The notes under the pieces: generated by a model
What the model was told of the DNA's origin: nothing
Databases searched by the model: none
Seen by the model: the letters and a program-made list of their open reading frames with translations, nothing else
Shown here: piece by piece, positions 1-39,795 of the stretch
How positions within the stretch are numbered: position 1 is the first letter of the stretch
Layout of the letters: every line of letters begins with the position of its first letter
Position numbers and translations under genes: made by a program
Source of the DNA: a virus
IMG/VR virus record: IMGVR_UViG_3300032285_001914
Span: 1-39,795 of that record
DNA length: 39,795 nt
Strand: one strand, 5' to 3'

Positions 1-20
1 CTAGGGACGGGGCGGCATTC

Positions 21-55
21 GAGGGGGGCTTCCGACACGCCGAGAAGCCCTCCTC
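21..55 (+). terminator. Hairpin terminator after the junction-spanning operon
   Basis: Bases 21-31 pair with 45-55 over 11 positions with one G-T wobble, leaving a 13-base loop. It lies 17 bases after the stop codon at 2-4 (39674-39676 in the right copy) and before the first promoter, which is where a terminator is expected. There is no T-run, so intrinsic termination would be weak. Confidence 0.5.
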
Positions 56-62
56 ACCCATA

Positions 63-122
63 TTGACTTGACACGGGGTCAAGGGATATGATTTACTTGA
101 TGTATGGGGTTAAACCGACCCC
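63..122 (+). promoter_or_regulatory. Promoter and leader hairpin for the first gene
   Basis: TTGACA (68-73) is followed by 18 bases and TTTACT (92-97), with an extended -10 TG at 89-90. A second overlapping pair, TTGACT (63-68) and TATGAT (87-92), also has 18-base spacing. Just downstream GGGG (106-109) can pair with CCCC (119-122), and a purine-rich ribosome-binding site precedes the ATG at 141. The same arrangement recurs at several other operon starts. Confidence 0.7.
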
Positions 123-140
123 CAATAGAGGGAGTACCGA

Positions 141-1517: not shown

Positions 1518-1724
1518 ATGAAATGCACAGATTGTCACGTGGACTGGCACGCTCCAGACAACGAGATAACCGAGGAGCACTGCGAAGTGGGCATCTGTAC
1601 TAAGATGGTGTTCCACTGCTGCAGTTGCCGCAAGGTCTTGAAGGTTCGAATGATTCACAACCGTCAATGCCAGATCGCGCTGTACGAGGATTTCAACGAA
1701 CGAGAGGACCAAGACGATGATTAG
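1518..1724 (+). CDS. Small Cys-rich, probably zinc-binding protein, 68 aa
   Basis: It starts 2 bases after the previous stop and overlaps the start of PurB by 8 bases, so the three genes are translationally linked. The sequence has CTDC near residue 3, then CEVGIC near 22, then CCSC near 34, with several His. This spacing suggests one or two bound zinc ions. The C-terminus is very acidic (EREDQDDD). Such tiny zinc proteins are common in phages of actinobacteria, but the function is unknown. Confidence 0.75.
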   Translation: MKCTDCHVDWHAPDNEITEEHCEVGICTKMVFHCCSCRKVLKVRMIHNRQCQIALYEDFNEREDQDDD

Positions 1725-2997
1725 TCGATACGAAACCCCAGCGATGGCAGAGATCTGGTCGGACCAGCGACGTCTGGACACGTGGGTGAAGGTCGAGTTA
1801 GCCGTGATCAGCGCACAGGTCGAGACAGGCGTGCTACCAGACTCGGCTTGGAAGCAGGCGATCGGGCTGCCTGCGCCAACTCCCGAGCAGGTAGCCGAGC
1901 GGGAACTGATCACACGGCACGACGTGGTGGCGTTCCTCGATGTCTGGGGCGCAGAGTTCGCGCATCTGGGCATGACCAGCAGTGATCTGGTCGAAACCGC
2001 GCAGTCAATCGCGTTGGTGGAAGCCTCGGGCGTGCTGTTGCTAGCACTGGTCGAACTGTCCACCACCTGCCACAAGCATGCGCTCAATCAGTGGGACACG
2101 CACCGAATCGGACGCACCCACGGACAGCACGGCACTATCGACACTTGGGGTCATCGCATGGCGGACTTCACCACCGCACTGGACCGCCAACTCATGCGAC
2201 TAGCGCGCGCCACACAGGACGTCGGAATAGCCAAGTTGAGCGGACCGACAGGCACGTACGCCGACATCTCACGTGAAGTCGAAATGCGAGCCGCATACGA
2301 GTTGCTGTTGACACCAGCGGACGTGGCTAGCCAGATCTTGATGCGCGACCGTCTAATTCACTGGACGCACGTAGTTGCCGAGACAGTTGGAATCTGCGAA
2401 GCCATCGCCACTGAGATCAGACTGATGGCGCACGGCGACGTAGCCGAAGCACACGAATCATTCGGCAGTTCGCAAAAAGGCTCAAGTTCAATGCCGCACA
2501 AGCGAAATCCGATCACTGCTGAACGCATATGCGGTTTGGCTCGGTTAGCGCGTGCGTATTCCGCTGCAGTTGAACCTAGCATCGTCCAGTGGCACGAACG
2601 CGATATCGCGCACTCAAGCGTGGAGCGTGTGGCGTTAGCAGATCTGTGCCACGTGGCGCACTTTGCTCTGATCGAGACTAACCACTTGATCAACGGGCTG
2701 CGACTCAACGCCTATAAGATGCTGGATAAGGTTGTTAGCGATCTGAACTTGAGCAGCCACCGAGTTCTTGCTGCCCTGATGCGCGCGGGCATTCCACGGG
2801 CTGCCGCCCACGATTACGTCCAAGAAGCCACACGGGAGGCTTGGAGGACCGATCTACGGCGCGAAATAGCCCGAACCCTGCCCAAAGCCTTCCCAGATAC
2901 CGTCCTTGACCTCGAAGAGATATTCTCGCTGTCGGGCGCGACGGCGGGCATGGACTGGATTCGCGACGCGCTGGCGTCCGATGGGGATTTGGCTTGA
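1717..2997 (+). CDS. purB: Adenylosuccinate lyase (PurB), phage-encoded
   Basis: This enzyme of the fumarase/aspartase superfamily cleaves fumarate from succinyl-purine nucleotides. At 426 aa it is near the usual length. Conserved parts are all visible: TSSD at residues 87-90, GRTHGQ at 132-137 with the catalytic His135, the mobile signature loop ending in SSSMPHKRNP at 256-265 with its catalytic Ser, and ERDIAHSS at 294-301. It is therefore probably active. Beside a PurZ-type synthetase in the same genome, the likely substrate is the succinylated 2-amino-deoxyadenylate (dSMP), giving 2-amino-dAMP. Known Z-phages are described as relying on host PurB for this step. Codon use matches neighbouring phage genes, so I see no sign of a very recent host transfer. 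Confidence 0.95.
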   Translation: MISRYETPAMAEIWSDQRRLDTWVKVELAVISAQVETGVLPDSAWKQAIGLPAPTPEQVAERELITRHDVVAFLDVWGAEFAHLGMTSSDLVETAQSIALVEASGVLLLALVELSTTCHKHALNQWDTHRIGRTHGQHGTIDTWGHRMADFTTALDRQLMRLARATQDVGIAKLSGPTGTYADISREVEMRAAYELLLTPADVASQILMRDRLIHWTHVVAETVGICEAIATEIRLMAHGDVAEAHESFGSSQKGSSSMPHKRNPITAERICGLARLARAYSAAVEPSIVQWHERDIAHSSVERVALADLCHVAHFALIETNHLINGLRLNAYKMLDKVVSDLNLSSHRVLAALMRAGIPRAAAHDYVQEATREAWRTDLRREIARTLPKAFPDTVLDLEEIFSLSGATAGMDWIRDALASDGDLA

Positions 2998-9401: not shown

Positions 9402-11243
9402 ATGAAAGTCCTAAAACCAAGCGAAATCCTGCCAGATCTGGAAGGGCTGTACGTAGCCGTAGACACCGAAACCAGCGGACTGTTCGTAGATGATGGCGCG
9501 CGAGTCTCCATTGTTAGTGTGGCGTGGCGCGAAAGTGGACAGCCAAGGCTCGGAGCAGGCATAGTCACCTACGCATTCCCGTTCGACCAAGGACGCTACG
9601 CCGAAAAGACAGGCACAACCGAAAGCGCATTCGACGTCGACTACAACCTTGATCAGACTGAATGGGAGTTCTTACTCCAGTGGCTAACCAAGCACAACCT
9701 GATCATGCACAACGCCAAATTCGACCTGCACATGCTCCGCACAGGCACACGGCACTGGACAGGCGTGAACCTAGTCGACCAAGTCATCTGGGACACCCAA
9801 GTAACACACAACCTGTTCGAACCGCTACTGACCAGCAGCCTCAAGCCCACTAGCGCAAGGTTATTTGGGGAAGATGTGGTGCAAGAAAGCCGCGATATCC
9901 AGAACGCCCTACGCAAACAAGGCACAGGACTAACCAAACGCTACGATCTGGTCGACTGGTCAATCGTCGGACCGTACGCAGCACAAGACACCGCCCTGAC
10001 CCTACGGCTGTACGAATGGCAGCAACGCAGGCTCGAAACCGACGACCAGCACCTCGGAGTTCTCGCCCAGCGCGAAGTCGATCTCATGAAAGTGTTGTAC
10101 AAAATGGAAACCCGAGGCATCGGATTCGACGCCGAACGAGCCGAACAATCCGCCAGCAAACTGCGCGCCCTCAAGATCAAACTGCAAGAACAACTGCCGT
10201 TCAAGCCCACACTGCCAGCCGCCAAACAATACTACTTCGGAGATCTGGGGCTGATTCCTAGCAAAGTTGGCGCAAGTGGAGCACCAAGCCTCGACAACGA
10301 GACCATTAAGAAACTAGCCAAAAAGAACACCCCACACGCCGAGACCTTCCTGCGATGGACCGAAGTGAAAAGCGCACTAGAGAAATGGTACGACAACTGG
10401 GGATCGATGGTCGGACCAGATGGACGGCTGCGCACCTCGTTCCGACAGACTAAAGTGGTCAGCGGTCGCTTGAGTGTCGAACGTGTGCAACTGCAAGCAA
10501 TCCCGCACGACTACCAACTGAACCAATTGTTTGGTGAAGGAGTCGAAGGTGTGCGAGCGTTCTTCCAGCCAAAAGAAGGACACCAACTCTGGGAAATCGA
10601 CATCAGTCAAGCCGAGATCAGAGTCGCAACTGCTGTGGCGCACTGCCAGAACATGCGCGACCGACTGGAAGCAGGACAAGATGCACACGACGCTACAACA
10701 CAGTTGGTGTTCGGAATTGAAAAAGACGACCCTGAATGGGACAAGTACCGATCAGTGGGTAAACGGTTGACCTTTGGCATGCTGTACGGCGCAGGAGTTC
10801 GCACAACCCGCGAACAGATCAAACTGTACACAGGTGTTGACGCTAGTGAAGGTCAAGTACGCGAATGGGTAGAAGCGTACCGAACTGCGTTCCCCGAGTT
10901 CGTGCAAGCAGCAAGGTACGCAGACAACGCTGTGCAAAAACGCGGATATGTTAGACTAATAACAGGGCGGCTACGGCATTGGGGTCTTGATGAACAAGGT
11001 CACAAAGCATTCAACGCTGTTATACAAGGTGGCGTAGCGGAAACTATGAAGATCGCGATGATAGAAGTCGAGACACGGTTTCCAGACATCTTGCTCTTGC
11101 AGATTCACGACTCGATGGTCATCGAAGTTCCTGATGCCGTAGCGCAGTCCGTTGTCATTCAAGTGCGTGACACGTTGACTCAGATCTTCGAGTCGATGTT
11201 CAACATCGAGTTCAAGGCAGACTACAAACAATGGGCAAAATGA
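9402..11243 (+). CDS. Family A DNA polymerase with 3'-5' exonuclease (DpoZ-like)
   Basis: The 613-aa protein is the phage replicase, with the layout of a Klenow fragment and no 5'-3' nuclease domain. Proofreading motifs are intact: AVDTETSG (Asp21, Glu23), NAKFD (Asp108) and YAAQD (Asp196). Polymerase motifs are intact too: motif A with Asp400 (EIDISQAEIR), motif B with Arg450, Lys454, Phe458 and Tyr462 (GKRLTFGMLYG), and motif C IHD with Asp570. In Z-genome siphoviruses a polymerase of this type and size (DpoZ) accompanies PurZ and favours 2-aminoadenine. That preference is inferred here from context. The ATG at 9402 has the strong site AAAGGTGAG. Confidence 0.93.
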   Translation: MKVLKPSEILPDLEGLYVAVDTETSGLFVDDGARVSIVSVAWRESGQPRLGAGIVTYAFPFDQGRYAEKTGTTESAFDVDYNLDQTEWEFLLQWLTKHNLIMHNAKFDLHMLRTGTRHWTGVNLVDQVIWDTQVTHNLFEPLLTSSLKPTSARLFGEDVVQESRDIQNALRKQGTGLTKRYDLVDWSIVGPYAAQDTALTLRLYEWQQRRLETDDQHLGVLAQREVDLMKVLYKMETRGIGFDAERAEQSASKLRALKIKLQEQLPFKPTLPAAKQYYFGDLGLIPSKVGASGAPSLDNETIKKLAKKNTPHAETFLRWTEVKSALEKWYDNWGSMVGPDGRLRTSFRQTKVVSGRLSVERVQLQAIPHDYQLNQLFGEGVEGVRAFFQPKEGHQLWEIDISQAEIRVATAVAHCQNMRDRLEAGQDAHDATTQLVFGIEKDDPEWDKYRSVGKRLTFGMLYGAGVRTTREQIKLYTGVDASEGQVREWVEAYRTAFPEFVQAARYADNAVQKRGYVRLITGRLRHWGLDEQGHKAFNAVIQGGVAETMKIAMIEVETRFPDILLLQIHDSMVIEVPDAVAQSVVIQVRDTLTQIFESMFNIEFKADYKQWAK

Positions 11244-12443: not shown

Positions 12444-13364
12444 ATGAGTAAAGCAACAATAATAGTCGGTGACGTTAGGACTGCGTTGCAGTCTGTTCCA
12501 GATCGATCGATTCAAACGTGTGTTACGTCTCCCCCTTATTGGGGGCTTCGTGATTACGGCACGAACGATCAAATCGGATTAGAAGAAACGCCAGATGAGT
12601 ATGTTGATCAAATGGTACAAGTATTTAAAGAGGTGTGGCGCGTATTAAAAGACGACGGCACGCTTTGGTTAAATGTCGGTGATAGTTACGCAGGAAATAT
12701 GAGTAGAGCAAGTAACAACGGTCGCGCTGGCTACGGAACTGAACGCGAAGGCGTATTTAATCGAATACCCGACGGGCTAAAAGCAAAAGACTTAGTTGGT
12801 ATCCCGTGGCGGCTAGCGTTTGCGCTGCAGGCTGATGGATGGTACTTAAGACAAGACATTATTTGGGCTAAGCCTAATCCAATGCCTGAATCAGTCACGG
12901 ACAGATGTACTAAATCGCACGAATATATTTTTCTTATGAGCAAGTCTCGCAAGTATTTTTACGATCACAAATCCATTAAAGAACCAGCCCGAGATTGGGG
13001 AGTACGAGACAGAACGGACGGCAAGTATCACAATGAAGGAACTGGACTAACGCCTCATTCTGGATTAACCAAATCGTACGAAACCAAAAACAAGCGCGAT
13101 GTTTGGTATGTTCCAACCAAATCCTATAAAGGCGCGCATTTTGCTGTAATGCCTGAGGCGTTGGTTGAGCCCTGCATTCTTGCTGGCTCGTCCGTTGGTG
13201 ACACAGTGCTAGACCCTTTTATGGGTTCTGGAACTGTGGGTGTGGTTGCTCTCCGACACGGTAGAGAGTTTGTGGGCACGGAATTAAATCCAGATTACGC
13301 CGATCTTGCAGCAAGCCGAATTTCTAACGATGCACCGTTATTAAACGAAGTGGAGTCAAAATGA
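12444..13364 (+). CDS. DNA methyltransferase, beta class (TSPPY; N4-cytosine or N6-adenine)
   Basis: In this 306-aa S-adenosylmethionine-dependent DNA methyltransferase the catalytic motif TSPPYW is at residues 28-33. The cofactor-binding motif follows at the C-terminus (DPFMGSGT, 257-264, then FVGTELNPDYA), the order of the beta class. SPPY is usual in N4-cytosine enzymes but also occurs in some N6-adenine enzymes. The middle (about 85-230) should be the target recognition region. No restriction nuclease is nearby, so it probably modifies phage DNA for protection or signalling. If the genome carries 2-aminoadenine, cytosine is the simpler target. AGATCT, which is unusually frequent in this genome, is a candidate site. 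Confidence 0.92.
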   Translation: MSKATIIVGDVRTALQSVPDRSIQTCVTSPPYWGLRDYGTNDQIGLEETPDEYVDQMVQVFKEVWRVLKDDGTLWLNVGDSYAGNMSRASNNGRAGYGTEREGVFNRIPDGLKAKDLVGIPWRLAFALQADGWYLRQDIIWAKPNPMPESVTDRCTKSHEYIFLMSKSRKYFYDHKSIKEPARDWGVRDRTDGKYHNEGTGLTPHSGLTKSYETKNKRDVWYVPTKSYKGAHFAVMPEALVEPCILAGSSVGDTVLDPFMGSGTVGVVALRHGREFVGTELNPDYADLAASRISNDAPLLNEVESK

Positions 13365-13625: not shown

Positions 13626-14663
13626 GTGGGCAGAGTAAGCGTAGTAGTCGGAGGACAATTCGGCTCAGAAGGCAAAGGCGCAGTAGCAGGCTACCTAAGC
13701 ACCAATAAAGACGAGAACGTCATCGGCGTTCGAGTCGCAGGACCAAACGCAGGACACACAGTGTACGGCGACGGACCAGACGGCGAAATCGGCACATATG
13801 CGTGGAAACTGCGCACAGTGCCAGTCACAGCCGTCACCAACCCAGACAGCAAAATCGTCATAGCCGCAGGCTCAGAAATCGAGTTCGCAGTGCTAGACGA
13901 CGAACTGGACCGACTAGACCGCGCAGGCTACAACGGGACAGAGCGCATTATCATCGACGATCAAGCAACCGTGCTAGAAGATCGACACAAGCAAGTGGAG
14001 CAAGACGCAGATCTGACCGCCTTACTCGGCTCAACCAGCAAAGGCATCGGCGCAGCCCGCGCAGATCGCCTACTCCGAGGAGCGTCCCTAAATGGGGGTG
14101 GCGTTGATACCGCCGCACTACTGGCGCAAGAACTCAAAGACTACAACACCCACGTGATCATCGAAGGCACACAAGGCTACGGACTAGGGCTGCACGCAGG
14201 CTACTACCCATTCTGCACTTCCAGCGACTGCCGAGCCATTGACTTCCTAGCCATGGCAGGCGTGAACCCGTGGCAATACGGAGCAGCCGACGTAGACGTC
14301 TGGGTAGTCGCACGCACCTACCCGATTCGCGTGGCAGGAAACAGCGGTCCGTTGTCAAACGAGACCACATGGGACAAACTGGGCTTCGAACCAGAACGAA
14401 CCACAGTCACCAACAAGATCAGACGCGTAGGCGAATGGGACAGTGAACTCGTACGCGAAGCCGTCCGAGCCAACGGCGGCGCACCGACCGTCAAACTAGC
14501 CCTAACCATGTTCGACTACGTGTTCCCCGAACTCGCAGGTGCTACAATAGTCCCACAAGATCAGAAATACTGGGACTACATCGAAAAGATCGAAAAAGAG
14601 ACAGGAGCGAAGGTTGCGTTAGTTGGCACAAGCCCAACAACAATGGCGTACACCTACCACTAA
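13626..14663 (+). CDS. purZ: PurZ: adenylosuccinate synthetase-like, 2-aminoadenine pathway
   Basis: At 345 aa it is shorter than bacterial PurA (about 430). It should join aspartate to dGMP to make dSMP, the first step toward 2-amino-dATP. The phosphate-binding loop reads GGQFGSEGKG (residues 9-18): Ser14 stands where PurA has a catalytic Asp (WGDEGKGK), the change I recall as diagnostic of PurZ because it makes room for the 2-amino group. GPNAGHTV (39-46), EGTQGYGLGLH (180-190) and TYPIRVAGNSGP (231-242) match other family regions. The GTG start has GGAAGGAAA upstream. It heads a run of nucleotide-metabolism genes, and PurB lies elsewhere in the genome. Confidence 0.93.
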   Translation: MGRVSVVVGGQFGSEGKGAVAGYLSTNKDENVIGVRVAGPNAGHTVYGDGPDGEIGTYAWKLRTVPVTAVTNPDSKIVIAAGSEIEFAVLDDELDRLDRAGYNGTERIIIDDQATVLEDRHKQVEQDADLTALLGSTSKGIGAARADRLLRGASLNGGGVDTAALLAQELKDYNTHVIIEGTQGYGLGLHAGYYPFCTSSDCRAIDFLAMAGVNPWQYGAADVDVWVVARTYPIRVAGNSGPLSNETTWDKLGFEPERTTVTNKIRRVGEWDSELVREAVRANGGAPTVKLALTMFDYVFPELAGATIVPQDQKYWDYIEKIEKETGAKVALVGTSPTTMAYTYH

Positions 14664-14666
14664 AAC

Positions 14667-14927
14667 ATGAGCCTCGGATACCACTGCGACGGTCCAGAAT
14701 GCGACGAATACGTACTCACACACCAGAGTGCCGCCGCTGACTGGATCGTCGTTGTGGACGAAACCCAACAGACCTTTCACTTCTGTACGGGCTGGCACAT
14801 GACACGCTGGGGAGCAGCAGAATACGAACCTGCTAACGAACAGCCAGAAGAACAAGGGCAATTCATAGTCGTAGTTCACATGGACGAAGAATATGAAGAA
14901 GATGAAGACGAGGACGAAGAAGCATGA
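14667..14927 (+). CDS. Small zinc-binding-like protein with acidic tail, 86 aa
   Basis: It starts 3 bases after the PurZ stop. HCDGPEC near the N-terminus and HFCTGWH around residues 38-44 supply Cys and His for one zinc ion, a small beta-hairpin zinc fold often found in actinophages. The last 15 residues are almost all Asp and Glu (YEEDEDEDEEA). This acidic tail could mimic DNA or act as a binding tail. The next start overlaps its stop by ATGA. Confidence 0.75.
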   Translation: MSLGYHCDGPECDEYVLTHQSAAADWIVVVDETQQTFHFCTGWHMTRWGAAEYEPANEQPEEQGQFIVVVHMDEEYEEDEDEDEEA

Positions 14928-15013
14928 GCACAATCGCACCAGTAAAACCACTGAGAGTGGACCAACCAACCGTACCAGACAGTGAGATCTGGGACGACGA
15001 CGACGAAGACTAA
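14924..15013 (+). CDS. Very small acidic protein, 29 aa
   Basis: A 29-codon frame coupled by ATGA to the upstream gene and ending in an acidic tail (IWDDDDED). The acidic end resembles that of the preceding protein. Short, Pro-containing and probably unstructured. Its position in a tightly packed operon supports it, but coding is not certain. Confidence 0.5.
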   Translation: MSTIAPVKPLRVDQPTVPDSEIWDDDDED

Positions 15014-15029
15014 AACGAAGGAGAGGGCT

Positions 15030-15374
15030 ATGGAAGGCTCAAATCAAGACAAAAACACACGGATATTCGAGTTCATGGAGTGGTGGAACGCCCATTCTGA
15101 AGACTCACTAGGCGCAATCCTGCCAAAAGTGCGCGAATACGGCAGCACCGACTTGCACATCGTCGGCGAAGCCCTGCTAAAAATGATGCCGCAACTTGAA
15201 GGCAAAGTCCACGCAGCAGAACTGGGCATCTCGTTCTACCTGCTAGGCAAAGTCGGACGAATCATCGGCGGCTACGCAGACGGACACGCACCCAGCGACG
15301 ACACGTGGTACGACACAGGCATCTACGCACTGATGGCACAACGCGTACGCGCGACAGGTGGCATCTTTCCATGA
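15030..15374 (+). CDS. mazZ: MazG-like nucleotide pyrophosphohydrolase, MazZ candidate
   Basis: The 114-aa protein has the pattern I know from actinophage MazG-like proteins: LPKVREYGSTDLHIVG at about residues 31-46, an AAELGISFYLLGKVGR helix at 62-77 and SDDTWYDTGIY at 89-99. Glu and Asp at 36, 64, 90, 91 and 95 could bind the metal ions. In Z-genome phages the MazG-like enzyme MazZ converts dGTP to dGMP, which is the PurZ substrate. Lying three genes after PurZ in the same operon, it fits that role well. The classical MazG ExxE...ExxD spacing is not exact, so the family call is moderate. The start has GGAGAGG. Confidence 0.7.
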   Translation: MEGSNQDKNTRIFEFMEWWNAHSEDSLGAILPKVREYGSTDLHIVGEALLKMMPQLEGKVHAAELGISFYLLGKVGRIIGGYADGHAPSDDTWYDTGIYALMAQRVRATGGIFP

Positions 15375-15784
15375 TCGTGTACCTAGCAGGACCAATCGAC
15401 AACGCACAAGATCACAGCAACGTACACAACGTACGCAACGTACGCCAAGATCTGCACACGCTACTGAAAAACCACGTTGTATTCGACCCATCAGCAGCGT
15501 GGACCGTAGCAAGCACCCAAAAACCGCGACCAGCCCTACAAGAGATCAACGACTACGCACTGGAATCATGCGACATGGTCGTGGCGTTCCTAATGCCAAA
15601 CGTTCTCACAATCGGCACAATCATGGAAATCCAACTGGCAAGCACGCTCGGCAAAACCGTGTTGCTGTACGCACCAGACATCAAGCCAAGTTGGGCATTG
15701 GAAGGGCTGCGTGGAGTAATCCACTGCACCGATCGCGAAGTGCTAAAAGACATCATCGACTCAATGGAAGCAGTTATCGGCTAA
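15371..15784 (+). CDS. Nucleoside 2-deoxyribosyltransferase-like protein
   Basis: In this 137-aa Rossmann-like protein, IVYLAGPIDN opens the fold. DMVVAFL and GTIMEIQLA (Gly82-Thr83, Glu86) match the conserved region with the catalytic Glu of nucleoside 2-deoxyribosyltransferases and the related deoxynucleotide N-hydrolases (DNPH1/RCL). It would cleave or exchange the base of a deoxynucleoside or its monophosphate. In this operon it might remove dAMP or dGMP by-products and could replace the missing dATPase DatZ; that is speculation. It starts at ATG 15371, overlapping the MazZ-like stop (ATGA). Residues about 18-25 are encoded by three near-identical 9-base units. Confidence 0.75.
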   Translation: MIVYLAGPIDNAQDHSNVHNVRNVRQDLHTLLKNHVVFDPSAAWTVASTQKPRPALQEINDYALESCDMVVAFLMPNVLTIGTIMEIQLASTLGKTVLLYAPDIKPSWALEGLRGVIHCTDREVLKDIIDSMEAVIG

Positions 15785-15858: not shown

Positions 15859-16079
15859 TGACACAAGAAGAGACAGAGTTGCTAGAACTGATCGCGCGAA
15901 TTGACGAAGCAGACAAGCATTACTCGTATTACAAAACCGATTACGGCTTGGCTTGTAAGTACTGCAGCGACAAAGCGCGCGACAAATCAGAAAACAAAAA
16001 CGTTTTCGTTATGAGTCCGTGTTTAGAACTTGACGCGATCTACAAGACCATCAAAACACCAGACAGAGAGCAACAATGA
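15858..16079 (+). CDS. Hypothetical protein, 73 aa
   Basis: It is coupled by TAATG upstream and overlaps dUTPase by 4 bases. The N-terminus is a Glu/Leu helix (ETELLELIARIDEADKHY). A CKYC pair at about residues 33-36 and a later Cys in MSPCLELD may bind a metal. I do not recognise it. It is located between the nucleotide-metabolism genes but has no visible catalytic motif. Confidence 0.65.
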   Translation: MTQEETELLELIARIDEADKHYSYYKTDYGLACKYCSDKARDKSENKNVFVMSPCLELDAIYKTIKTPDREQQ

Positions 16080-16495
16080 ACAACAAACTGCTGTACATCG
16101 GAACAGCACCAACACGTGCACATCACGACGACGCGGGCTTCGATCTGTACGTCAATGGCGACTGGACCGTAGAGCCAAACTCGTTCGTAGACATCGACCT
16201 CAACTGTGCAGTGGCGTTCCCAGCAGGAACATGGGGACTGCTCACAGGACGCAGCAGCACACTACGCAAACGCGGACTGCTCGTAGCCCAAGGCATCATC
16301 GACACAGGCTACACAGGACCACTGTTCGCAGGAGTGCAAAACCTGACCAGCAAACCTGTTCACGTTGAGCACGGCGAGCGAATAGCCCAACTGGTAATAA
16401 TGGCGAACCTAGCGATGCTCGTAGAACTGGAAGAAACCACCGAACTACCAGACACAACGAGAGGCGCAAATGGATTCGGTTCAACAGGCAACTAG
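16076..16495 (+). CDS. dut: dUTPase (dUTP diphosphatase), trimeric type
   Basis: The 139-aa protein has all five dUTPase motifs in order: AGFDLY (20-25), GRSSTLRKRGL (58-68), GIIDTGYTG (73-81, catalytic Asp76), GERIAQLV (100-107) and RGANGFGSTG (129-138). It hydrolyses dUTP to dUMP and pyrophosphate, keeping uracil out of phage DNA and feeding dTMP synthesis. It closes the nucleotide block that begins with PurZ. The ATG overlaps the upstream stop by 4 bases. Length and motifs indicate a complete enzyme. Confidence 0.93.
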   Translation: MNNKLLYIGTAPTRAHHDDAGFDLYVNGDWTVEPNSFVDIDLNCAVAFPAGTWGLLTGRSSTLRKRGLLVAQGIIDTGYTGPLFAGVQNLTSKPVHVEHGERIAQLVIMANLAMLVELEETTELPDTTRGANGFGSTGN

Positions 16496-36934: not shown

Positions 36935-37129
36935 ATGCCAGCGGCAGGCTGCGCGGTAGGCAAGTTGCGCAAGAAACTGAGCACAGACGACGCCAAGGCG
37001 TTAGATCGTTTGCTTGAATCGGAACTATCTGCGCGAGCGGTGATCACTGTGATCGCCGAACATCTGAATGCCGACATCGGTCCTCAGACGGTTGCCAAAC
37101 ACCGAGGAAGGGTGTGTAGGTGTGAGTAA
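36935..37129 (+). CDS. Small helix-turn-helix protein, 64 aa
   Basis: The sequence KLRKKLSTDDAKALDRLLESELSARAVITVIAEHLNAD is helical, followed by IGPQTVAKHRGRVCRC, a recognition-helix pattern that ends with a Cys pair. Actinophages often have such a protein before a metallophosphoesterase gene. It overlaps the next gene by 8 bases. It probably binds DNA. There is no strong Shine-Dalgarno, so it may be translated by coupling to the lysin gene. Confidence 0.7.
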   Translation: MPAAGCAVGKLRKKLSTDDAKALDRLLESELSARAVITVIAEHLNADIGPQTVAKHRGRVCRCE

Positions 37130-38324
37130 GTTTAGCGACAGGGTTGAGGAGTTACTTCAACCAGCGGAGCGTCGGGCGTTGCCTGTAGCGGTCTCCGCAA
37201 GCAGATCAGATGCCACCCACGAACCCAATGGCTGGACCGCTGGTGTGGTGGTGGACGGTAGCCGTGGCACATTAACCACTAAACCGTCAGACGGACCTGT
37301 CCAGAATTGGGACGACGAACTCAGGGCTTGGGGTTTCGACCCTGCTCTCTACGAGGTGGTCGAACCCGTGCGCATGTCCACGTGGCAGACGTACGACGAA
37401 CGCCAACTGTGGGCGTACAAGGCTCAAATCCGCACCCGATTGTCTGGTCTGGCTGCGTCCGAGATCGAAGCGATGACTGAACCCGTGAAGCGTGACCGCC
37501 GCAAGGCTCGTCCACGTCCAACGGGTTCATCTGCGTTTGTTGTTCCGATTGGTGACTGGCAGGTTGGAAAGCCTGACGGCGATGGACTGGATGGCACGGT
37601 TGCTCGCATTGAGGCTTCTATCGTTGCTGTGGTGGAGCGTGCAGAGTTCTTGCGCGACAGCGGCTACGAACTTGGGCATCTGGTGGTCACTTCCGCTGGA
37701 GATCTGGGCGAAGGCTGCGACGGTCACTACGCCCAGCAGACTTTCGGTGTTGAGGTGGACCGACGTGATCAGAACAAGATCATTCGCCGCATGGCTCGCA
37801 ACGCATTAATGGAGTGGTCTCCGCTGTTTGATCGCGTGACGGTCGCTGCAGTTGGCGGTAATCATGGCGAGAATAGGCGTGGTGGCAAATCGTTCACTAG
37901 TACCAATGACAACGATGATGTAGCGGTGTGGGAAGCGGTTGCTGAGACTTTGGCTGTGCGCGACGATTTATACGGTCATGTGGAGTGGCTTTTGCCTCGC
38001 GATGAACTTTCGGTCTCGTTTGCTGTTGGCGACAGGATTGTTGGTCTTGCTCATGGTCATCAAGCCAGATCTGGCGATATTGGTAAGTGGTGGCAGGGTC
38101 AGGCTCTTGGCAACCGTGCTGTTGCTGACGCTGATCTGCTGATCACTGGGCATTTTCACCATTTTCGCATGATTGAAGTGACGGACAATCGCTGGTGGCT
38201 TCAAGTGCCTGCGCAGGATGGCGGGTCTGACTGGTTCTCTGAGATGAGCGGTAATTCGAACTCAACTGGTCAGGTGACGTTCGTTTTGGACGAATCTGGC
38301 TGGCGTGAACTCGCAATTTTGTAA
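37122..38324 (+). CDS. Metallophosphoesterase (calcineurin-like)
   Basis: The 400-aa protein has the metal-binding motifs of calcineurin-like enzymes: PIGDWQVGK with Asp145, SAGDLGEG with Asp194, GGNHGEN with Asn247 and His248, GLAHGHQ with His311 and His313, and TGHFHHF with His344 and His346. The aspect IGDWQ in place of the usual DxH is common in the phage group. The first 135 residues have no known fold. It may be a DNA nuclease of the Mre11/SbcD type or a nucleotide phosphatase. I chose the GTG at 37122 after GAGGAAGG. Confidence 0.88.
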   Translation: MSKFSDRVEELLQPAERRALPVAVSASRSDATHEPNGWTAGVVVDGSRGTLTTKPSDGPVQNWDDELRAWGFDPALYEVVEPVRMSTWQTYDERQLWAYKAQIRTRLSGLAASEIEAMTEPVKRDRRKARPRPTGSSAFVVPIGDWQVGKPDGDGLDGTVARIEASIVAVVERAEFLRDSGYELGHLVVTSAGDLGEGCDGHYAQQTFGVEVDRRDQNKIIRRMARNALMEWSPLFDRVTVAAVGGNHGENRRGGKSFTSTNDNDDVAVWEAVAETLAVRDDLYGHVEWLLPRDELSVSFAVGDRIVGLAHGHQARSGDIGKWWQGQALGNRAVADADLLITGHFHHFRMIEVTDNRWWLQVPAQDGGSDWFSEMSGNSNSTGQVTFVLDESGWRELAIL

Positions 38325-39496: not shown

Positions 39497-39676
39497 ATGC
39501 ATTTGACACTCAATGGAATCGTGCTGATCATCTGGCTGATAGCGTGCCTGATGTTCTGGCGCATGGGCTTCACCGCTGGCAAGAACGCGGTCCGTCGCTA
39601 CAACCGCCGAGAGCGCGGAATCGAGGCGGCTCAAGCCCGTCACCCGTCCATCACGTACGCCCAGAAGTTCCGCTAG
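39497..39676 (+). CDS. Small membrane protein spanning the genome junction, 59 aa
   Basis: Residues 5-21 (LNGIVLIIWLIACLMFW) form one membrane helix, followed by a strongly basic region (RRYNRRERGIE) that should stay in the cytoplasm. The stop codon TAG lies in the terminal repeat, and the same TAG is at bases 2-4 of the window. The hairpin just downstream probably ends the transcript. Function unknown. Confidence 0.65.
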   Translation: MHLTLNGIVLIIWLIACLMFWRMGFTAGKNAVRRYNRRERGIEAAQARHPSITYAQKFR

Positions 39677-39795
39677 GGACGGGGCGGCATTCGAGGGGGG
39701 CTTCCGACACGCCGAGAAGCCCTCCTCACCCATATTGACTTGACACGGGGTCAAGGGATATGATTTACTTGATGTATGGGGTTAAACCGACCCCC
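39673..39795. repeat. Terminal direct repeat, right copy
   Basis: Identical to bases 1-123, including the terminator hairpin (39693-39727) and the promoter for the first gene. The upstream gene's stop codon is inside the repeat, and the promoter in it reads into the gene at 141 when the ends are joined. The window is therefore a complete circular map or has short terminal redundancy. Confidence 0.95.

What the first reader, a model, noticed from the sequence alone, without database searches (positions are those of the whole stretch)
13626..15784. PurZ operon: the phage probably replaces adenine with 2-aminoadenine
The synthetase at 13626 has the PurZ signature GGQFGSEGKG with Ser14 in place of the PurA Asp, and it is short (345 aa). 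A MazG-like protein that fits MazZ lies three genes downstream, and a 613-aa Klenow-type polymerase like DpoZ is 2.4 kb upstream. Published Z-phages (S-2L, phiVC8, SH-Ab 15497) carry this combination. The Z:T pair has three hydrogen bonds, so the DNA would be unusually stable and resist many restriction enzymes.
Basis: partly seen in the sequence, partly recalled or inferred. Interest (0 to 1): 0.95.

Follow-up and report, generated by a model that had tools for sequence, protein, structure and literature searches.

The report
Complete PurZ0-type Z-DNA phage genome
This metagenomic phage carries almost a complete kit for making DNA with 2-aminoadenine in place of adenine, including an adenylosuccinate lyase that textbook examples borrow from the host, and the kit contains one unexplained gene that so far travels only with this chemistry.

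Summary
The headline of the finding holds. The 345-aa protein at 13626-14663 is a PurZ: it passes NCBI's curated PurZ model and falls inside the PurZ0 clade (100/100) with the Wayne and Ghobes phages. The polymerase at 9402-11243 falls in the DpoZ clade of PurZ0 phages (100/100). The record has an exact 123-bp terminal repeat, so it is very probably a complete genome.

Two corrections. The gene three places downstream (15371-15784) is not MazG-like but DmtZ, a nucleoside deoxyribosyltransferase-family enzyme with all six checked functional residues. No DatZ, classical MazZ or DUF5664 was found: this is the PurZ0 gene set (PurZ0, DmtZ, DutZ, DpoZ), not the S-2L/phiVC8 set. The Ser signature alone is not diagnostic, because many bacterial chromosomes carry it.

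Two features go beyond the published scheme. The phage encodes its own PurB (1717-2997), as about half of the PurZ0 records searched do. The gene at 15030-15374 belongs to an unnamed family that follows purZ wherever it could be checked (63 of 63 further contigs). It may be a third MazG-like nucleotide pyrophosphohydrolase; fold evidence is suggestive only. A new member of a known kind; virion chemistry is untested.

The parts
13626..14663 (+). purZ (PurZ0 type): predicted succino-2-amino-dAMP synthetase (dGMP + Asp -> dSMP), 345 aa, GTG start
   Evidence: NF038379 336.6 bits > 300; best PDB relative 7vf6, PurA-like adenylosuccinate synthetase, E 4e-86; tree: inside the 28-row phage PurZ0 clade 100/100; Ser14 and His44 at the catalytic positions
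1717..2997 (+). purB: adenylosuccinate lyase, predicted to turn dSMP into dZMP, 426 aa
   Evidence: TIGR00928 337.5 bits > cut-off 326.2; intact lyase signature GSSSMPHKRN; groups with PurB of other PurZ0 phages against bacterial PurB (98 SH-aLRT, quick tree, few bacterial rows); 65% and 61% identical PurB in the two closest relatives
9402..11243 (+). dpoZ: family A DNA polymerase with 3'-5' exonuclease domain, 613 aa (616 aa if GTG 9393 is used)
   Evidence: NF038381 DpoZ 354.2 bits > 350; PF00476 and PF01612; one 22-row clade of PurZ0-phage polymerases 100/100, apart from seven non-Z polymerases
15030..15374 (+). Unnamed purZ-partner family, 114 aa, candidate MazG-like dNTP pyrophosphohydrolase (inferred); ATGA overlap with dmtZ
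   Evidence: no HMM hit; behind purZ in 87 of 89 distinct PurZ loci and in 63 of 63 IMG/VR contigs found with the partner itself as query where it could be checked; AF2 pLDDT 88.8, nearest PDB rows S-2L MazZ Z 6.1, DCTPP1 5.2, iMazG 5.1; AAGGAGA before ATG 15030
15371..15784 (+). dmtZ: predicted dAMP hydrolase / deoxyribose-5-phosphate transferase to the Z base, 137 aa
   Evidence: PF05014 E 5e-9; 35% identical to the Wayne DmtZ domain; Tyr4, Asp10, Pro40, Asn60, Glu86, Trp108 match Ghobes Y6, D12, P57, N77, E103, W124
16076..16495 (+). dutZ: dUTPase-fold enzyme predicted to hydrolyse dATP, dGTP and dUTP, 139 aa
   Evidence: PF00692 E 4e-26; 56% identical to the Wayne DutZ domain and 58% to Parvaparticeps
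14667..14927 (+). 86-aa Cys/His-containing ORF between purZ and the partner gene; function unknown, found only in the window and its two closest relatives
   Evidence: no family hit; HMM hits only window, L010, L011
6560..8995 (+). primase-polymerase, probably part of the replication module
   Evidence: PF09250 Prim-Pol E 4e-23, PriCT_1
12444..13364 (+). DNA methyltransferase with SPPY motif upstream of purZ; membership in the Z module uncertain
   Evidence: PF01555 E 6e-56; not found at other PurZ0 loci
1..123 (.). exact direct terminal repeat (with 39673-39795), shows a circularly closed assembly
39673..39795 (.). second copy of the 123-bp terminal repeat

Best explanation
The window is a complete genome of a tailed phage with PurZ0-type Z-DNA metabolism. 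Predicted pathway: DutZ, perhaps with the 15030 protein, hydrolyses dGTP to dGMP and dATP to dAMP. PurZ0 joins dGMP with aspartate to give dSMP. The phage's own PurB splits off fumarate to give dZMP. Host kinases make dZTP. DpoZ builds Z into DNA in preference to A. DmtZ destroys the dAMP made by DutZ and can rebuild dZMP from salvaged Z base. The result would be adenine replaced by 2-aminoadenine, with Z:T pairs of three hydrogen bonds and DNA that resists many restriction enzymes. Shown here: gene identities, phylogenetic placement, conserved functional residues, completeness, gene linkage. Inferred from characterised relatives: all enzyme activities. Not shown: Z in virion DNA, the activity of PurB on dSMP, and the role of the 15030 protein.
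For: Curated PurZ, DpoZ and PurB models all passed. PurZ inside the PurZ0 clade with Wayne and Ghobes, 100/100. Polymerase inside the PurZ0-phage DpoZ clade, 100/100. DmtZ functional residues all kept; DutZ 56-58% to relatives including the characterised Wayne enzyme; activities of Wayne and Ghobes enzymes measured in PMC12884076. The two closest relatives share purZ, the partner gene, dmtZ, dutZ, dpoZ and purB. Exact 123-bp terminal repeat, so absence of DatZ, MazZ and DUF5664 is informative.
Against: DpoZ passes its curated cut-off only narrowly (354.2 against 350). The Z-selectivity of this polymerase subfamily rests on literature and no residue is known to be diagnostic (PMC8599892). Ser at the catalytic position also occurs in a chromosomal family that is not phage-linked. 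No virion chemistry exists for a metagenomic contig. In vitro the Wayne and Ghobes phosphohydrolases also act on dUTP, so substrate ranges cannot be read from sequence.
Confidence: 0.9

Rival explanations
1. The synthetase is an ordinary PurA, or a member of the chromosomal Ser-type PurZ-like family with another role, and the phage uses normal adenine.
For: A scan of bacterial and archaeal genomes found 329 relatives; of the 80 kept, nearly all carry the same GSEGKG motif.
Against: PurA models score far below their cut-offs while the PurZ model passes. The window lies in the phage clade, apart from the chromosomal clade. DpoZ, DmtZ and DutZ accompany it, whereas the chromosomal proteins sit in a different cassette.
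Confidence: 0.04
2. Z replaces adenine only in part, because the phage lacks DatZ and DpoZ is leaky.
For: No DatZ in a complete genome. phiVC8 DpoZ still incorporates A when dATP is present (PMC8599892).
Against: DutZ and DmtZ are measured dATP and dAMP destroyers in relatives and would take over the DatZ role (PMC12884076).
Confidence: 0.1
3. (Rival for the 15030 gene only.) The 15030 protein is not an enzyme but an accessory subunit or regulator of PurZ0.
For: Strict adjacency to purZ; no sequence match to any MazG family by profile comparison; a second model of the family shows no clear MazG preference.
Against: Arthrobacter phage Wayne carries the dATP/dGTP pyrophosphohydrolase DUF5664 in the same place, and the window protein's best PDB and viral-model matches include MazZ, iMazG, DCTPP1, DUF6378 and Nmad1.
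Confidence: 0.35

Closest known systems
PurZ0 actinophages: Gordonia phage Ghobes (Ghobesvirus)
   Same: purZ0, 15030-family gene, dmtZ, dutZ in the same order as separate genes, DpoZ, primase-polymerase, own PurB
   Different: Only 45% PurZ identity; purB and part of the replication genes lie on the opposite strand; the window's methyltransferase family was not found there
Streptomyces phages Galactica, Hiyaa, Keanu (Hiyaavirus)
   Same: Closest annotated PurZ (51-55%), own PurB, 15030-family domain
   Different: 82-kb genomes; dmtZ and dutZ fused; the 15030-family domain carries a long N-terminal extension
Arthrobacter phage Wayne (Korravirus)
   Same: PurZ0, DpoZ, DmtZ and DutZ; activities characterised in PMC12884076
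   Different: dmtZ-dutZ fusion; DUF5664 instead of the 15030 family behind purZ; no PurB match
Cyanophage S-2L, vibriophage phiVC8, Acinetobacter SH-Ab 15497 (PurZ group)
   Same: PurZ-based Z-DNA synthesis
   Different: They carry DatZ and MazZ or DUF5664-DUF550, not found here; S-2L has no DpoZ; host enzymes do the lyase step (PMC8342488)

Membership tests
PurZ (succino-amino-deoxyadenylate synthase) | passes the curated family model | tested here: met
   NF038379 336.6 > 300 bits
PurZ (succino-amino-deoxyadenylate synthase) | Ser in place of the PurA catalytic Asp | tested here: met
   Ser14 aligned with E. coli PurA Asp; not exclusive to phage PurZ
PurZ (succino-amino-deoxyadenylate synthase) | uses dGMP | not testable with these tools
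   needs an enzyme assay
PurZ0 subgroup | phylogenetic placement with Wayne/Ghobes PurZ0 and apart from PurZ of S-2L/phiVC8 | tested here: met
   28-row clade 100/100
PurZ0 subgroup | phosphate-donor preference | not tested
   no residue-level test was conclusive
DpoZ | passes curated model and groups with DpoZ of Z phages | tested here: met
   354.2 > 350 bits; 22-row clade 100/100
DpoZ | prefers dZTP over dATP | not testable with these tools
   no diagnostic residue known (PMC8599892)
DmtZ | NDT family protein with Tyr6, Asp12, Pro57, Asn77, Glu103, Trp124 (Ghobes numbering) | tested here: met
   PF05014; all six conserved
DutZ | dUTPase domain close to characterised DutZ, near dmtZ in a PurZ0 phage | tested here: met
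   56% to the Wayne DutZ domain
   no hit in the window; profile comparison of the 15030 family negative
all-alpha NTP pyrophosphohydrolase (MazG) superfamily, for 15030-15374 | four-helix MazG fold | tested here: inconclusive
   window model: S-2L MazZ Z 6.1, 2.6 A over 60 residues, DCTPP1 5.2, iMazG 5.1; second family model: iMazG ranks 16 at Z 5.4, tied with unrelated helical proteins; viral models: DUF6378 prob 0.97, Nmad1
DatZ | HD-domain dATP triphosphohydrolase gene present | tested here: not met
   no hit with S-2L, phiVC8 and Bhz9 DatZ queries
adenylosuccinate lyase PurB | passes curated model with intact signature | tested here: met
   TIGR00928 337.5 > 326.2; GSSSMPHKRN

The most novel reading that the evidence does not exclude
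The gene behind purZ (15030-15374) founds a third, previously unnamed class of dNTP pyrophosphohydrolase dedicated to Z-DNA synthesis, which supplies dGMP to PurZ0. It is found so far only behind purZ0 and is replaced by DUF5664 in Arthrobacter phages. Together with the phage's own PurB it makes this lineage independent of the host for every step from dGTP to dZMP.
Probability: 0.45. Interest if true: 0.65.

Novelty: new member of a known kind. Interest (0 to 1): 0.45.

Why it matters
Z-DNA is the most complete natural replacement of a DNA base. This genome and its many metagenomic relatives show that PurZ0 phages reach well beyond cultured actinophages. They also point to two parts missing from the published PurZ0 scheme: a phage PurB lineage and an unnamed strict purZ0 partner. 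The partner is a small single-domain protein, so its activity can be tested directly. If it is a dGTP-to-dGMP enzyme, it completes the substrate supply of PurZ0 and gives a compact gene set for making Z-DNA.

Tried and rejected
Close DNA relatives among phage records: none. A scan of viral contigs with the single PurZ sequence found nothing; the alignment query worked. MazG identity of 15371-15784: rejected, it is an NDT-family protein. DatZ, MazZ and DUF5664 in the window: not found. Sequence homology of the 15030 family to MazG, MazZ-1, DUF5664 and DUF1599: no support by hhalign, DUF1599 score within the shuffled range. The first DUF1599 set contained wrong ORFs and was redone. Comparison with DUF6378 gave only a faint match to one member. 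Foldseek against the PDB had no significant hit; the second family model gave no clear MazG signal, so the MazG assignment is kept as a hypothesis. PDB sequence search with the family profile: only designed helical proteins, E near 1. Family search on plasmids: none. I considered the Ser14 motif as proof of PurZ and rejected it, because the chromosomal relatives share it. Restriction-site avoidance was not computed because host effects would confound it. The PurB tree is a quick one with few bacterial rows and several long branches, so a single origin of phage PurB is not established.

Full report
What is there. The window is a virus record of 39,795 bases with an exact 123-bp direct repeat at its ends, so it is very probably a closed, complete genome. 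It has terminase, portal, primase-polymerase, a PD-(D/E)XK nuclease and an AAA protein. No phage record resembles its 9-24 kb stretch at the DNA level. The synthetase at 13626-14663 is 345 aa and carries GGQFGSEGKG. It passes the curated PurZ model, 336.6 bits against a cut-off of 300, while every PurA model scores far below its own cut-off.

Placement of PurZ. In a tree of 63 sequences the window protein lies in a phage clade of 28 rows (100/100) that holds Wayne and Ghobes, whose PurZ is the PurZ0 type (PMC12884076), and apart from S-2L, phiVC8 and Acinetobacter PurZ. The best solved relative is 7vf6, a PurA-like adenylosuccinate synthetase. The Ser14 motif alone would not have settled this. 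A scan of bacterial and archaeal genomes gave 329 relatives, and of the 80 kept nearly all have the same GSEGKG motif. Those form separate branches outside the phage clade.

Polymerase. The family A polymerase at 9402-11243 passes the curated DpoZ model narrowly (354.2 against 350). The tree is decisive: 22 PurZ0-phage polymerases including the window form one clade (100/100) on a long branch, separate from seven ordinary polymerases and from phiVC8-type DpoZ.

The pool-managing genes. The gene three places after purZ, 15371-15784, is a nucleoside deoxyribosyltransferase-family protein. It matches DmtZ, the PurZ0-phage enzyme that hydrolyses dAMP and moves deoxyribose 5-phosphate to the Z base (PMC12884076). 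The catalytic Tyr, Asn and Glu, the Asp tied to substrate, the Pro and the lid Trp are all present. The dUTPase-like protein at 16076-16495 is 56% identical to the DutZ domain of Wayne, which hydrolyses dATP, dGTP and dUTP. DatZ, MazZ and DUF5664 were not found. The gene set is therefore that of PurZ0 phages and not of S-2L or phiVC8.

Own PurB. Published schemes assign this step to the host (PMC8342488; PMC12783734), and PMC12884076 does not mention PurB. PurB is nevertheless annotated in Ghobes and Hiyaavirus, and 17 of 30 PurZ phage records searched whole have a match. Phage PurBs fall on one side of a branch against the few bacterial ones sampled (quick tree).

The partner gene. The gene 15030-15374 (114 aa, ATG after AAGGAGA, overlapping dmtZ by ATGA) belongs to a family without any Pfam, PHROG, NCBIfam or PADLOC model hit. 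In the window an 86-aa ORF lies between it and purZ; elsewhere it usually follows purZ directly. It occurs behind purZ in 87 of the 89 distinct PurZ loci first collected. The two exceptions are Wayne, which has DUF5664 there, and a Bacillus phage outside the PurZ0 clade. Searching phage records with this protein hit 31 records. Their host genera and counts equal those of the non-Arthrobacter actinophage PurZ records as far as those are listed, and none is an Arthrobacter phage. A scan of IMG/VR with the partner family itself gave 66 newly cut loci: 63 had purZ upstream, 3 were too short to tell, none lacked it. Many of these contigs are the same ones found earlier through purZ, so the counts are not independent of the first set, but the query was.

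What the partner may be. The AlphaFold model (pLDDT 88.8) has four helices. Its three best structural rows are S-2L MazZ (Z 6.1, 2.6 A over 60 residues), DCTPP1 and iMazG, all MazG-type enzymes. Among viral models the best non-family matches are DUF6378, Nmad1 and similar proteins. Against this, sequence profile comparison with MazG, MazZ, DUF5664 and DUF1599 is negative, Z near 6 is weak for a helical bundle, and a model of another family member does not favour MazG. I treat a MazG-like dNTP pyrophosphohydrolase as the leading hypothesis at about even odds.

Mechanism. DutZ and perhaps the partner make dGMP and dAMP; PurZ0 makes dSMP; phage PurB makes dZMP; host kinases make dZTP; DpoZ incorporates it; DmtZ removes dAMP and can salvage Z. 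Identities and linkage are shown here; activities are inferred from relatives; virion chemistry is untested.

Novelty. The system is a new lineage of a known kind, Z-DNA phages of the PurZ0 type. What I did not find described in the papers I could read are the strict partner gene and the spread of phage PurB. Subscription papers, among them Pezo 2021 and Tong 2023, could not be read, so this is not proof that they are unreported.

Noticed in passing
L145:7891-12152, L103:8016-11161, L092:7956-11855 and other loci L091-L169: Bacterial and archaeal chromosomes carry Ser-type PurZ-like proteins (GGQ[FY]GSEGKG) in a conserved cassette: an upstream RNase_H_2 / DUF429 / P-loop kinase protein, the PurZ-like gene, and a dCTP-deaminase-like gene (62 of 79 loci share a downstream family); some PurZ-like proteins are fused to a P-loop kinase domain. 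A few lie near what look like type I restriction genes. No PADLOC system matches well; possibly a nucleotide-based defence or salvage system.
   Followed up: partly
records behind L013, L018, L027, L028, L033, L059, L062, L066, L069 (G302-G306, G312, G315, G318, G319): Nine PurZ0 phage records of 32-43 kb have no family A polymerase at all, although most of their loci carry a primase-polymerase. They may replicate Z-DNA without DpoZ, as S-2L does, unless the contigs are incomplete.
   Followed up: partly
12444-13364: DNA methyltransferase with an SPPY motif, which is more typical of N4-cytosine enzymes; it would suit a genome without normal adenine. Not found in other PurZ0 loci.
   Followed up: no
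L003:22693-23178 (Ghobes gp53): Annotated as deoxyuridine triphosphatase but the sequence is the DmtZ protein (NDT family); the dUTPase-like gene is gp55.
   Followed up: yes
L236:11763-13187 and 36988-37338 (Salmonella phage 9NA): A DUF6378 protein, the nearest non-family viral fold match of the 15030 protein, lies next to a putative dUTPase gene; the genome also has a nucleoside deoxyribosyltransferase beside a DNA methyltransferase.
   Followed up: no
1-24000 of the window: Strong positive AT skew (0.15-0.31, A over T on the coding strand) through the early and replication half, dropping near zero in the structural half.
   Followed up: no
L009 (Bacillus phage vB_BpsS-140) 12027-13148: A Ser-type PurZ-like protein that branches with the S-2L/phiVC8 PurZ group on a long branch, with an adenylate kinase and a dUTPase gene nearby but no DpoZ relative in the stretch read.
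   Followed up: no
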